From Charina bottae (lineage: Eukaryota; Chordata; Lepidosauria; Squamata; Charinaidae): a stretch of DNA of 64,000 nt. A program made the position numbers and the translations under genes. The stretch lies in contig JALMGJ010000005.1 of NCBI GenBank assembly GCA_023362775.1, positions 67,471,963-67,535,962 of the forward strand, read 5' to 3'. This document shows positions 42,901-51,900 of the stretch, piece after piece. The notes beneath the pieces were generated by a model. That model ran no database searches. It was not told the DNA's origin and worked only from the letters and a program-made list of their open reading frames with translations. Each line of letters begins with the position of its first letter. The first letter of the stretch is position 1.

Positions 42901-45900
42901 ATGCTGCCATCCATAACAACTGCCCAAGGGAAACAGGTGGTGTGCTCTCACTCATGACATTTCACATTTCTGCAATGCGGCCCTGCTCTCTTGAGTTTCT
43001 TGCTGGATCAGTCTGTTCAACAGCAAAGTGAAACAGTTCAAGAAGAGTAGATGAGTACTTCAACAAAGTTGGAAGCCCTTTGATTCTTCAATGTGAAAAT
43101 GCCATAATTTTGTTGCATGTCCATGACTTGGGTGAGAGGAATTAGTTAGTATGATCAATAAAATTCTGGGTATCAGTTGGATTAAGAGGAGAAAAAATAG
43201 GACAAGGCCATGAATAATTGCCCTATGGATGTCAAATCAATAATTGATTTTTTTTAATTTTATTTTTATTTTATTTTTTGTGCCTTCAAGTCAGCATTAA
43301 CTCCTGGCAACTGCCTGGACCAGTACCTGCAGTTTTCTTGGCAGCATTTTTGGAAGTGGTTTGCCATTGTCTTCTTCCTAGGGTTAAGAGAGAGTGACTG
43401 GCCCAAGGTCACCCAGCTGCCTTTGTGCCTAAGTCATGACTAAAAGTTACAGTCTCTAGTCTGGTGCCTTAACCATTACACCAAACTGGCTCTTGATTCA
43501 AATCTATACATACATACATACATACATACATACATACCGTATTTTCCGGCGTATAAGACGACTTTTTAACCCAGGAAAATCTTCTCAAAAGTCGGGGGTC
43601 GTCTTATACGCCGGAAAATACGGTACTCGCCGTTTAAGACCTCTCCTGGCCAAGTGCAGCCGCTCGCCGAGCGCGGGAGAAACGCGGGGAGGGGGGAGCG
43701 AGCTCCGTTCCCTCGGCGCCCGTTGAGCGTTGTGGGCGACTTTGGAGCCCGTCGTGGAGCCACTGCGTTTTGCCCCCTCCCTTCCCAAGGCTGCTCCGAG
43801 GGAACGGAGCTCGCTCCCCCCTCCCCGCGTTTCTCCCGCGCTCGTCCTCCTGCTCTTCCCTGGGGGCTGCGTTCTGGTGAGCGGCTGCACTTGGCCAGGA
43901 GAGGTCTTAAACGGCGAGTACCGTATTTTCCGGCGTATATCCCAAACACTATATTTTAAATGGAAAAGTTGGGGGTCGTCTTATACGCCCAGTCGTCTTA
44001 TACGCCGGAAAATACGGTACATACATACAGTACATACTTATTTCAGCAAGTATGGAAGCATCCCCAAAGATTAAGTACCCAAATGGAAGTCTGTTATCAT
44101 ATTACAACAGACTTAATAGGCTGGGAACTAGAGAAACTATGTATTTAATTCAGCCCTATGCTTTTTGTCATGGTACAACCTCCTAAAATGTAGTACCAAA
44201 GAATTGTATTAAATATGGTGGAATAAAAGTGCAGTTAATTAAGAAAATTATCAAGGTAATTCCCAAATTTTCTAGCCTATGCTAGCTTCTCTCACACTTT
44301 TCTTGTATTTAATTAATTGGATTAGAGGGAAAGCCAGATTATATTTGTATTTTAAAAATCTACTGAAATAGTTTATCTAGAAAGTACTCGCACAACGTGG
44401 AATGAACATAATGTAGAAGTGTTTACGCCCTTGAGTCAAGCTTGAGTTCCAGTAACAACATGCAGTTTTTTCAGCAGCATTACAGAAGTGATTTGCTATG
44501 CCTATCCAGGATGTTTTTCAACTTCATAGTCTAGCCCAGGGGTCGGCAAACTTTTTTTGCCGGGAGCCATTTTGATATGCTCGTGCACATTTTGAAGTGC
44601 TCGAGAGCCAGGGGGCGGGGTTTGCGGGCGGGGGCCAATCGCGTGGAAGGGGGCGGGGTTTGCGGGCGGGGGCCAATCACGTGGAAGGGGGCGGGGTTTG
44701 CGGGCGGGGGCCAATCACGTGGCTTATTGGGGCGCGTGGGAGGGCCCATGTAGCAGTTCCCCCCCCCACCGGCTTCCCGCCCCTCCCTCCTTGCCTGCAG
44801 AAGGCGGCCGGCCTTTCCCCCCGCTATTTCCGGAAGTGATCCAGCACCGATCTGCGGGCTGCGGGGGCTCCAGCTTCGGAGGGCGCCGGCTGCGCCTCTG
44901 CCTCGGCAGCCAAGCTGTTCCGAACCAAGGAGCCAGGGCGGAGCCGGGGCAGGGGAGGAACGGGGAGCGCCAGGGGACTCACCCGCTGCTGCTCGGCTGC
45001 CACCTTCCTCCTCCGCTTCAGCCGCCCGCCCGCCGAGTCCCGGCCCTTCAGCCCCCGCTGGGGGGAGGGGGGCAGGGACTCAGCGCCCGCACGCCCGGAG
45101 CCCAGCAGAGCTGCGTCTCGCCCAGCCCCGCCCTCCCAGAGTGGCCAGCGGAGCGCCACCGGCGCCCACCTGCTCGGGCAGGTACCAGCCTCTCTGCACG
45201 CTCCTTCCGCTGCTGCTGCTGCAGGGAGACGGCGTCCACCCGGCCCATCTGCCCGGGGTCCAGGGAGATCAGCTCCGGCGGGATCTTTGGCGAAGAGCGG
45301 CCGTGGGGGGGGGAACGAGGCAGGCGGCGACAAGCGGCGCGAGGCGGGAGGCAAGCGGGTGGGGCGGAGGACGCGTTTCTCTTCCTTCCCCCTCTTTAAA
45401 GCGGCTCACCTGGGCTTTGGGTTCCCACACCCAGCTCCCACAAACCCGCCACCGCAGCAGCGCAAACCCACTTCTTCCTTCCTGCTCCACTGGGTGCCAA
45501 GCCCGGGCGATTCTCCTGCCGATTTGATCAAAGTGGGGCGTGGGGGGTAGGGGTTGGTGAGTAGAAGCACTGGGTAGACCCGCGCGCGTGCGCGCACACC
45601 TTTGGAGAAAAATAATCGGCAAGGGATTCACGGCGAAGTTTTTTAAATCTCCCCCCACCACCCAAACACACGCGCGCGCATGCACACACCCTCCTCCCCC
45701 TCTCCCTCCCTCCCTCCCTTTCTCTCATAACCAACCCCCCATACACACACACACACACACACACACGTTAGGAGACCGCCCACCGCACAACTAAGACCCC
45801 ATTCGATTTAAAGAGAGACTGCATTCAGAGGCTGACATTCATTCAATAGATAGAGCGATCATAAGCAGGCTGTGCGACGGGCGTGCTCGCCCTTTCTTCC

Positions 45901-48900: not shown

Positions 48901-51900
48901 GGTCTAGCCTACCCTTTTCTGATGGTCATACATCTAAGTCCTAACCAGGCCCAAACCTTCTTAGCTTCTGAGCCCAGATAAGGTCGATCAAGTTCTGGCA
49001 TCTGCTGTTATAAACAAATTGTTGGTGAATGGCTTATTTTCACAATTAAGACACCTTTTCTACCAGAGTTGTTAAGTTCCAGCCTTATTTATTACATGTA
49101 GAAACAGCTTAACACACACACACACACACACACCAGGAAGTCATAGAAAATATCCAGATTCTTAAGACCCAGGGATTTCTGAGATGACTGATTTTTCAAA
49201 CTTTGAAACTTTCTCCTTTCTTATTCAATCTGTTGCTCAGACAAAGACCTTTATGCTACGTTTGACATATTATGCTGACATACATTTAAAATGCTTCTAA
49301 TGTATACACCTCATATATTATACATTAAGGAACATTTTAACATTACTGCTATGCAAGATTCATTGGTATTATGTGCAAAAAAAATCTATAAATATTTCAT
49401 TTTCTTATATTACTAAATAGTACTGTAGGAGCCTTGTATTTTCCTAAGAAAATACTTCTTTCTGTAAGAGCAATAAGGTACCAGAAGTTAGAATACTCAT
49501 AAGAATGAATAAGAGTAGTATAGAAAAAGGGAAAGGAAGAGGCACAGAAGGTTTGAAACTAGGAATAACACGATTACTGTTTTTATACTGCTGAGGAATA
49601 TTCTTGAAAAGAAAATTTGTTTTACAACATTCATAATAGGGTTTAATTGACAGTAATTTAGAATAAGGGAAATCTGATATAGGAAGATATTTGTCTTCCA
49701 GCACTGCTTTTGCAGAAATAATTTATGTGCAAATATACATGTAATCATGAATAAAATACAGACTAATGCAGGATATTAAGTACTACACCTTCAGAAAATA
49801 AGAGCAAAAACAGTGTAAATAGTAAGTCAAGCTGTGAGTGGACATTTTAAAATACCATTTTGAAGGCAGTGTAAATGGCTGCATTATGATCTTGACAGTT
49901 TTCATATTGTTTTCCCCAAGCTTATATTGGTTCTGTTTCCTTTATATTACCCAAATGTATTTGTGCTATAACATTTTCTTAATGAAATTAAATTGCCTTT
50001 TGTAAAAAGAAAAAAAATATGTTGTAGCCTAAGTATATTTTAAATCTAGGTGTAATATGATTCAGAAGTTTTTTCAATATACTTTTTATTCAGATGTGAT
50101 AAATGCAATGGAAAATGAAGAACTGTACATAAACAAGTAGATTTTGGTCCTAACAATAATTCTAATCTACTTCTATCCCACTCCCATTCTCCAGGGGCAT
50201 TTATTAAATACATATCATGACTCGTTAAGAAAATTTTACAAGGTATCCAGGCAATATTATCTTCTATTTGGAACCTTCATGTGTTTTCTCGTGTCTAGAG
50301 AAAGGAAGAATAGCTGCTGCACAATGTGTTTTGATTCAAAACTCTAGGAGCTACCCAGCTGGGAGCACCCTCTTTTCACAGTGCATGCTACTGATTAAAA
50401 CAACATTTTCATTGATTTCATGAAATTGGTGGCATGTGTTTATAAGATATAGATAGCATAAACATTAAGTATAGCAAAGATATTCTGTTTTTCTACTAGT
50501 GATAAGGGAATTTCCTGCCCTCTAGTGGAGACATCTGTAAAAAACAGGTAGGAATGATAGCATAGGCCAGAGCTTTCCAAACTTTTCATGTTAATGACAC
50601 ACTTTTTAGACATGCATCATTTCGCGACACACTCTTACAGCAGGGCACAAGGCAGGCACTAGGACCTGAGCGGAATCACAGCAGGTTTGGAGGCAGCAGG
50701 GCACAAGGCAGGCACTAGGACCTGTGTGGAATCCTGGCAGGGCTTGGAGGCAGCAGCAGCAGCCGCGAGACACCCAGACACTGCAGCCGACACGCTAACG
50801 TGTCCTGACACACAGTTTGGAAAGCTCTGGCATAGGCCATAAATGCTCCACTGCCTTAGACTGGGCCTCCCGCCTCCCCACTCAGTTAAATGCTGGGCCC
50901 TTTTTTATAAACTTAAGAATACTCTGCCTCTGGATCCCATTTTATTCATTATATTTTAAATTATTACTTATTATGTATTTTGTTTTATTTATAAATGCAT
51001 ATTAACGATTTAATTCTGTTGTAAACCGCCCAGAGTCCCCCTCGGGGGAGTTGGGCGGTGATAAATCCAATCAATCAATCAATAAATCCATCCATCCATC
51101 CATCCATCCATCCGCCCGCTTAGTTGGAAGAGCAAAGTGACTAGGCATAGAAGGTAAAGGAAATTATACTGCTTCTGCCAAACTCTAGAAAGTAAGAGAT
51201 TCAGCCAGACTGCATTCCTCTTGTATTACTTTAGCATTTGGAATGCACATGGGGAGTTTTAGGCTTCCTCAAATCATCCAGTGACACTGTGAAGACTCGC
51301 AGAGACACAGAGATTCAGATACCAACATGTTAGATGCTGCAACTATATCTTCAAGTTGTTGCCATGCCTGTTTCTCAAAGCCTCTCTGCCTTCTGGAGTT
51401 ACACATAGCTGGGCAGAGGCCAGCAATGGGGATAGAAATACATTCTACAGGGACTGTTTGATATGTAGGGTAGTTCTATCAGGTGTCTAGTGGAATACAG
51501 TGGTAACAAGGTGCTATACACAATTAGTCCTGAACGGTCTCTCCTTGTCTGCCTATTACGAGTTCCTTTATATACTGGGAAGCACCAGGACTTCTTGCCA
51601 GTCAACAGTCTTATTGTTTCAAAGTAACTTTACAAGTAAGTAATAATTACTGACCGTGATATGGGAAGAGCTTTTTCTTCTAAAACATTTTAACATTACA
51701 TTTTTTTTTCTTTTGGCAGGTAACTTAGCTACACTTACAGCCTTAAATCTCAGGCATTGTCCTTTGGAATTTCCCCCTCTTGAAGTGATACAGAAGGGTC
51801 TGTCGGTTATTTTATGCTTCCTCCGAAACAACAGTAATAAAAATAATGACTACGCAGAGCCTGTTACTCCAGGTACAGTAATGTTTTAATACATGTTTTT

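What the first reader, a model, noticed from the sequence alone, without database searches (positions are those of the whole stretch)
44537..48901. hAT foldback transposon that captured WDR46 exons and duplicated them as a giant palindrome
Seen: CAGGGGT-type termini, an exact 8-bp duplication GTCTAGCC, arms of about 1.15 kb in inverted orientation, and in each arm two exon-like segments with GT donors and reading frames. Known: hAT elements make 8-bp duplications, and Pack-type transposons that carry gene fragments are well described in plants but much less so in vertebrates. Inference: three exons ([10 protein letters not shown]..., [11 protein letters not shown]..., [12 protein letters not shown]) come from the C-terminus of WDR46, with introns retained, so capture occurred at DNA level and not by retroposition. 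Inverted duplication would give a long dsRNA hairpin if transcribed with the host intron.
Basis: partly seen in the sequence, partly recalled or inferred. Interest (0 to 1): 0.9.

Follow-up and report, generated by a model that had tools for sequence, protein, structure and literature searches.

The report
Snake hAT transposon carrying folded-back gene pieces
A small cut-and-paste transposon, apparently in a snake genome, picked up DNA pieces of two unrelated host genes, was inserted at least twice, and in each copy part of that cargo became a hairpin-like inverted repeat, a vertebrate example of how DNA transposons can shuffle and fold pieces of genes.

Summary
A 4,365-bp element (44537-48901) has CAGGGGT-type ends, an exact 8-bp target duplication (GTCTAGCC), and 1.15-kb inverted arms (7 substitutions, 3 indels over 1,140 aligned bases) around a ~980-bp loop. 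The WDR46 cargo is confirmed: the exon peptides hit squamate WDR46 (E 4e-21, a python best), and the retained intron aligns to an intron-containing WDR46 reading, so capture was at DNA level.

(1) The right end also carries an N-terminal coding piece of a second gene, related to snake SCAN/KRAB-type proteins (41 of 47 residues identical). (2) A second, related element lies 4.7 kb away in opposite orientation (53640-55914) with its own target duplication (GTCTATAC), the same cargo order, its own small foldback and an 8.5-copy 205-bp tandem array. (3) A cargo-free relative sits at 2757-3024. So this is a multicopy Pack-hAT (Pack-TIRs are already described in animals), not a classical foldback transposon: the terminal repeats are short and the palindrome is internal. 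Template switching followed by transposition is the likely origin. Double-stranded RNA output is possible but untested.

The parts
44529..44536 (.). left target-site duplication GTCTAGCC
44537..44734 (+). left end of the hAT MITE, CAGGGGTCGGCAAAC..., with three 38-bp GC-rich repeats (44610-44722)
44735..44823 (-). presumed WDR46 3' flank, from the MITE junction to the stop codon (origin and boundary inferred)
   Evidence: translation; inference
44824..44931 (-). WDR46 last exon ([39 protein letters not shown]), left half only; its start, and the loss of its acceptor (TG where AG is expected), are inferred by eye
   Evidence: tblastn of WDR46 proteins; PDB WDR46 match to residue 608 of 610; stop
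44946..46094 (.). left palindrome arm
44983..45072 (-). WDR46 exon C (...[25 protein letters not shown]); about 8 codons before it (GYDPEAKE in Liasis WDR46) are missing; donor GTGAGT follows
45186..45284 (-). WDR46 exon A ([33 protein letters not shown]), donor GTACCT
46095..47075 (.). loop between the arms; 46096-46185 repeats part of the left arm in direct orientation; 46229-46263 matches the tandem unit of copy 2
47076..48221 (.). right palindrome arm, 1,140 bases aligned to the left arm with 7 substitutions and 3 indels
47883..47981 (+). second, inverted copy of WDR46 exon A
48095..48184 (+). second, inverted copy of WDR46 exon C
48626..48763 (-). N-terminal coding piece of a gene related to snake SCAN/KRAB-type proteins ([39 protein letters not shown]...); exon borders not established
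48760..48901 (+). right end of the hAT MITE, including a second copy (93%) of the internal 58-bp segment found in the left end
48902..48909 (.). right target-site duplication GTCTAGCC
53632..53639 (.). copy 2 target-site duplication (GTCTATAC read on the - strand)
53640..55914 (-). copy 2: second Pack-hAT, ends 96.3% (134 bp) and 98.8% (167 bp, including about 25 bp of cargo) identical to copy 1, GC 72%
55723..55782 (+). WDR46 exon A piece in copy 2 ([20 protein letters not shown]), preceded by CACAG
55557..55718 (.). foldback of copy 2, two arms of about 80 bp (78 aligned, 5 substitutions, 2 indels)
53836..55582 (.). 8.5 copies of a 205-bp unit, itself partly an inverted repeat
53782..53836 (.). 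SCAN/KRAB-type gene pieces in copy 2, one inverted against the other
55915..55922 (.). copy 2 target-site duplication, other side (GTCTATAC on the - strand)
2757..3024 (-). cargo-free relative of the MITE (268 bp), TSD TTCTAGGA at 2749-2756 and 3025-3032

Best explanation
A nonautonomous hAT MITE, with target duplications of the Buster pattern nnnTAnnn, acquired by replication-type template switching a chimeric cargo: WDR46 exons A, C and last with introns in antisense, a third GC-rich module of unknown source, and an N-terminal coding piece of a SCAN/KRAB-type gene in antisense. The switch returned to the MITE upstream of where it had left, so that an internal 58-bp segment stands on both sides of the cargo. 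A transposase supplied in trans (none seen in the 10 of 126 ORFs scanned) then moved the composite element at least twice. Each copy underwent its own inverted duplication of the WDR46 part: 1.15-kb arms in copy 1, about 80-bp arms plus a tandem array in copy 2. Shown: ends, two target duplications, cargo identity, intron retention, shared order and shared right junction, different foldbacks. Inferred: template switching, trans-mobilisation, and formation of the palindrome after the copies separated (arm-to-arm gene conversion would look the same). The gene pieces are probably non-functional passengers: no complete gene, a truncated exon, one acceptor apparently lost.
For: TSDs and termini of two copies. 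About 1 kb of flank on each side of one copy does not match that of the other, so they are separate insertions, not a segmental duplication. Both share the MITE ends, the gene-2/MITE junction and the order MITE-left, WDR46, module, gene-2 piece, MITE-right. WDR46: of 1,770 candidates 11 reached E<=10; 9 of 11 carry the name WDR46, the other two are a hypothetical gecko protein and a nameless one, and all 11 bear PF08149. Human WDR46 is the best PDB hit at E 1.4e-5; the reversed peptide gave 1 hit at E 7.8, not WDR46. Intron retained: P0011 aligns at 67% over 92 aa from exon A on into the intron. Second gene: 8 of 8 hits are snake proteins. Arms 7/1,140 versus end regions of the two copies 7/290, Fisher p = 0.012; with the WDR46 piece (9/117) added to the latter, p = 1.5e-5. 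[quoted passage not shown] here GC is 63% and 72% against 42% in the window. TSD pattern nnnTAnnn as in Buster-group hATs (PMC3517528, passages).
Against: No parent-locus DNA or genome-wide copies could be searched (genome search did not complete), so the direction of events, copy number and source of module and loop are unknown. The divergence test compares different kinds of sequence and rests on few substitutions. The presence of the transposase was hardly tested (10 of 126 listed ORFs sent to Pfam). A search with the 193-aa open frame over the left half gave no hit at E<=1, so no further copy was found that way.
Confidence: 0.85

Rival explanations
1. Transposition-independent gap filling: a plain MITE already sat at 44537 and the cargo, including the palindrome, was filled in there during break repair.
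For: Most animal Pack-TIRs are single-copy and explained so (PMC8277862, section 7; discussion). The palindrome itself could have formed in place: its arms are less diverged than the two copies.
Against: Copy 2, with another TSD and unrelated flanks, shares the cargo order and the same gene-2/MITE junction, so the shared cargo predates the two insertions. Only the palindrome could be local.
Confidence: 0.1
2. Assembly or read artefact: a missed-adapter or chimeric long read produced the inverted repeat.
For: Missed adapters make inverted-repeat reads (recalled).
Against: Arms differ by 7 substitutions and 3 indels, are separated by about 980 bp, end in different cargo on the two sides, and lie between flanks that do not mirror each other and carry a matching 8-bp duplication. 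A missed adapter would mirror the flanks as well. Copy 2 has an independent foldback.
Confidence: 0.04
3. Capture by another route: retroposition or a Helitron, later flanked by hAT ends.
For: Helitrons capture gene fragments in eukaryotes (PMC4778049, an element reconstructed from bats; abstract start seen in the listing).
Against: Introns retained exclude processed retroposition; 8-bp TSDs and hAT-type ends in both copies plus a cargo-free relative with an 8-bp TSD fit hAT.
Confidence: 0.03
4. A functional hairpin-RNA locus: the palindrome is kept because its transcript yields small RNAs against WDR46 or zinc-finger genes.
For: The predicted RNA of 44944-48223 pairs 1,138 of 1,151 left-arm bases with the right arm; longest perfect helix 285 bp.
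Against: Any such palindrome folds so; no shuffle control was run, no transcription or small-RNA data are at hand, and the gene-2 piece lies outside the arms.
Confidence: 0.04

Closest known systems
Multicopy Pack-TIRs of animals, e.g. Pack-hAT-N8_XT with a CAPSL 5'UTR piece in Xenopus (Tan et al. 2021, PMC8277862; abstract and sections 7, 9, 12 read)
   Same: hAT ends, captured host-gene DNA, several copies with different TSDs, GC-rich cargo
   Different: The described example carries one 291-bp piece of one gene; here pieces of two genes, introns, a 1.15-kb palindrome, and different foldbacks in each copy. Only 4 multicopy cases were reported in its reference genomes (3 frog, 1 alligator).
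Ssk-FB4 family of Drosophila (same paper, section 9)
   Same: Host gene captured (the section's figure legend shows introns of Ssk), several transposed loci with distinct TSDs, attributed to template switching in a repetitive element
   Different: FB4 has about 700-bp terminal inverted repeats and 9-10-bp TSDs; here TIRs are short, TSDs 8 bp, and the long inverted repeat is inside the cargo
Pack-MULE and other Pack-TYPE elements of plants (PMC8903248, start of abstract seen)
   Same: Nonautonomous DNA transposons carrying gene fragments; chimeras of several genes (the latter recalled)
   Different: Plant hosts; Pack-MULEs belong to another superfamily with longer TSDs and TIRs (recalled)
Foldback (FB, Galileo) elements (recalled, except FB4 as above)
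   Same: Large inverted repeats
   Different: There the inverted repeats are terminal; here internal
Mar, a Buster-group hAT MITE of Drosophila (PMC3517528, passages)
   Same: TIR CAG(G/A)GGTAGGC resembles CAGGGGTCGGC; TSD nnnTAnnn
   Different: No cargo mentioned in the passages seen; different host

Membership tests
hAT superfamily | 8-bp target-site duplication | tested here: met
   GTCTAGCC, GTCTATAC and TTCTAGGA, exact on both sides of three elements
hAT superfamily | short terminal inverted repeats (5-27 bp per PMC3517528) | tested here: met
   11 of the first 13 bases match
hAT superfamily | moved by a hAT transposase | not testable with these tools
   nonautonomous; genome search unanswered in 10 attempts
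Buster group of hAT | TSD pattern nnnTAnnn | tested here: met
   3 of 3 TSDs have TA at positions 4-5; pattern from PMC3517528; three sites are few
Buster group of hAT | transposase phylogeny | not testable with these tools
   no transposase available
Pack-TIR (Pack-hAT) | host-gene DNA between the ends of one element with TSD | tested here: met
   WDR46 and SCAN/KRAB-type pieces
Pack-TIR (Pack-hAT) | parental copy identified in the same genome | not tested
   The genome search did not complete (10 attempts); only proteins from other records found
multicopy Pack-TIR | two or more copies with distinct TSDs | tested here: met
   copy 1 and copy 2, unrelated flanks
Foldback (FB/Galileo-type) transposon | long terminal inverted repeats | tested here: not met
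   arms start 0.4 kb and 0.7 kb inside the ends
hairpin-RNA (hpRNA) locus | transcript processed to small RNAs | not testable with these tools
   only predicted folding

The most novel reading that the evidence does not exclude
A vertebrate Pack-hAT family that repeatedly turns captured exons into inverted repeats, so that each new copy becomes a candidate source of double-stranded RNA matching host genes, here WDR46 (a ribosome-assembly factor) and a gene of the SCAN/KRAB class, a class that includes transposon repressors (recalled). The element would be an accidental or selected supplier of antisense RNA against host genes.
Probability: 0.06. Interest if true: 0.85.

Novelty: new variant of a known kind. 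Interest (0 to 1): 0.52.

Why it matters
Multicopy gene-carrying DNA transposons are rare in animals (4 in the reference genomes of a 100-species survey, PMC8277862 section 7). This one carries pieces of two unrelated genes, exists in two rearranged copies 4.7 kb apart, and has a cargo-free relative in the same window, so capture, rearrangement and movement can be partly ordered from sequence alone. It suggests that inverted duplication recurs in this family and could be measured genome-wide, a direct test of the template-switching-and-transposition model in a vertebrate. If the palindrome is transcribed it is also a natural double-stranded RNA with host-gene homology.

Tried and rejected
Searching the window's own genome for further copies, the parent locus and the transposase: the genome search was busy or unreachable in 10 of 10 identical attempts, so copy number and parent DNA remain open. 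Exact search of a 20-base left terminus in viral contigs: 0 matches. Right end against phage records: no match. Protein search with the 193-aa open frame of the left half: nothing at E<=1 among the 7,992 candidates scored. Pfam on the two cargo peptides: 0 families. PDB with the second-gene peptide: 3 hits, best E 0.59, judged chance.

My first spliced peptide included YLPEQ after exon A and I first read the junction as a frameshift. The alignment with snake WDR46 and P0011 showed that these residues come from the intron and that exon A ends at ...ERL before GT. There is no frameshift there, but exon C lacks about 8 codons at its start. Because the queries contained those 5 residues, their scores are slightly affected.

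'Foldback transposon' rejected because the inverted arms are internal. Assembly artefact judged unlikely because of divergence, loop and flanks. The idea that the two copies are one duplicated locus was rejected because the flanks do not match. Paper searches: (9 searches; listings only, apart from the two papers opened); no listed title or abstract start described this element. A text search for its terminal sequence gave 14 papers, all through the shorter third term and none through the two longer ones.
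Full report
What is there. The element at 44537-48901 begins CAGGGGTCGGCAAAC and, read inward from the other end, CAAGGGTCGGAAATG. It is bracketed by GTCTAGCC on both sides (44529-44536, 48902-48909). At this spacing two 8-mers of the window agree in 16 of 200,000 random draws. Inside are two inverted arms, 44946-46094 and 47076-48221, with 1,140 aligned bases, 7 substitutions and 3 indel events. 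Between them lies a loop of about 980 bp, of which 46096-46185 repeats part of the left arm in direct orientation. Of the 7 inverted matches of at least 100 bp and 85% listed for the window with the low-complexity filter on, this is the only one of 1 kb or more.

WDR46. A 92-residue peptide read from the exon-like segments of the left half, against the PDB, finds human WDR46 best (E 1.4e-5, aligned to residues 509-608 of 610); 5 sequences were listed at E<=10, the next being Utp7 at 1.4. The reversed peptide found 1 unrelated hit at E 7.8. In the large protein collection 11 of 1,770 candidates reached E<=10: 9 named WDR46, one hypothetical protein of Gekko kuhli and one without a name, all 11 with PF08149. 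The best is Liasis olivaceus, a python (E 4e-21, 69%), then Python bivittatus. tblastn of those proteins back to the window places exon A at 45284-45186 and again at 47883-47981, exon C at 45072-44983 and 48095-48184, and the last exon with its stop only at 44931-44824 (exact exon borders are mine). The nameless protein P0011, from a 3,043-bp contig, reads on from exon A into sequence that the snake WDR46 proteins lack, that is, into the intron. It aligns to the right arm at 67% over 92 aa; in the intron part alone I count 29 of 44 identical in the alignment printed there. The introns are retained, so the capture was of DNA. The captured copy is not a gene: exon C lacks about 8 codons at its start, exon A is preceded by AAG where copy 2 has CAG and P0011 a Q codon, the last exon seems to have lost its acceptor (by eye), and only the 3' part of the gene is present.

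A second gene. The minus strand of 48763-48626, next to the right end, encodes [39 protein letters not shown]... Eight of 3,839 candidates reached E<=10 and 8 of 8 are snake proteins (Naja naja, Liasis olivaceus, Pseudonaja textilis). Identity to the two Liasis proteins is 41 of 47, and tblastn of one back to the window gives E 3e-28 over 101 aa, the last part of which is low-complexity. Six of the 8 were scanned with Pfam: SCAN in 4 (P0013, P0014, P0015, P0018), KRAB in 3 (P0012, P0014, P0018), a C2H2 zinc finger below its cut-off in P0018, and nothing in P0016. The captured piece corresponds to residues 53-99 of P0013, far N-terminal of its SCAN domain (357-430).

A second copy and a cargo-free relative. 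Blasting the element against its own window found 53640-55914 on the minus strand. It has an exact TSD of its own, GTCTATAC, ends 96.3% and 98.8% identical over 134 and 167 bp (the latter includes about 25 bp of cargo), and flanks of about 1 kb that do not match those of copy 1. It carries a piece of exon A ([20 protein letters not shown], preceded by CACAG), its own foldback of about 80-bp arms, 8.5 copies of a 205-bp unit, and pieces of the same second gene, one inverted against the other. The 205-bp unit has a 35-bp relative in the loop of copy 1 (46229-46263). The order MITE-left, WDR46, this module, gene-2 piece, MITE-right is the same in both, and the gene-2/MITE junction is the same, so they descend from one composite ancestor. 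At 2757-3024 lies a 268-bp relative without cargo, TSD TTCTAGGA, 82% identical over 107 bp to the repeat module and 81% over 43 bp at the end. All three TSDs have TA at positions 4-5, as described for Buster-group hATs (PMC3517528, passages).

Order of events. The arms of copy 1 differ at 7 of 1,140 sites; the end regions of the two copies differ at 7 of 290 and the shared WDR46 piece at 9 of 117. Fisher p is 0.012 for arms against end regions and 1.5e-5 with the WDR46 piece included. So the palindrome is younger than the split of the copies, or has been kept alike by gene conversion; the numbers are small and the sequences of different kinds. In copy 1 the left half holds the contiguous stretch through the WDR46 stop while the right arm stops in the intron, so the left half is probably the original and the right arm the duplicate (inference). 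The cargo sits between two overlapping parts of the MITE: the 58-bp segment 44602-44659 recurs at 48766-48823 at 93%. A switch of template that came back upstream of its exit would explain this.

How it works, and how sure. Steps shown: hAT-type ends and TSDs, capture with introns, two insertions, shared order, different foldbacks. Steps inferred: template switching at capture and at foldback, and mobilisation by a transposase in trans. This matches the published account of multicopy Pack-TIRs as template switching followed by transposition, with GC-rich sources (PMC8277862, sections 7, 9 and 12 read); here GC is 63% and 72% against 42% in the window. I hold the composite Pack-hAT reading at 0.85.

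RNA. The predicted RNA of 44944-48223 pairs 1,138 of 1,151 left-arm bases with the right arm, with a longest perfect helix of 285 bp and -3,049 kcal/mol (no shuffle control). Whether it is transcribed is unknown, and no host gene around it was established.

Host. For WDR46 the best match is a python; for the second gene Naja naja ranks first by E-value and Liasis first in the pairwise comparison. The window also holds LINE and Tc1-type ORFs. A snake host is an inference, not a label.

What is known and what is new. Pack-TIRs of the hAT superfamily in animals are in print (370 Pack-TIRs in 100 genomes, 208 hAT, 4 multicopy), so the kind is known. Two-gene cargo, copy-specific inverted duplication in both copies, and two copies plus a cargo-free relative within 64 kb make it an instructive variant. 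The 9 paper searches made listed no description of it; they cover only open-licence papers, and I saw listings, not the listed papers, apart from the two opened.

Noticed in passing
window 43535-44020: Another GC-rich foldback element just upstream: nested inverted repeats (64 nt at 98%, 52 nt at 98%, 29 nt at 100%) built on the motif GTCGTCTTATACGCCGGAAAATACGGTA.
   Followed up: partly
window 17562-20653, minus strand: Endonuclease and reverse-transcriptase ORFs of a LINE, by recalled resemblance RTE/Bov-B type.
   Followed up: partly
window 33069-35366, minus strand: A long reverse-transcriptase ORF (548 aa) and an endonuclease fragment below its Pfam cut-off, L1-like by recalled resemblance.
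   Followed up: partly
window 25952-27063, minus strand: Two overlapping ORFs with DDE_3 and Tc3-type HTH domains, a Tc1/mariner-like transposase split over two frames.
   Followed up: partly
window 14624-15196, 40445-41228: Open frames with shared peptide stretches (MGKLAGK..., WGKSP...), apparently copies of one more repeat family; 59262-59732 shares a shorter stretch with 40843-41277 (by eye).
   Followed up: no
window 2520-2722, 15147-15357, 62549-62760: Inverted matches of about 200 bp at 85-86%, probably a dispersed repeat.
   Followed up: no
window 50568-50829 and 52847-53048: Two inverted matches (95% over 132 bp, 88% over 136 bp) between the two Pack-hAT copies.
   Followed up: no
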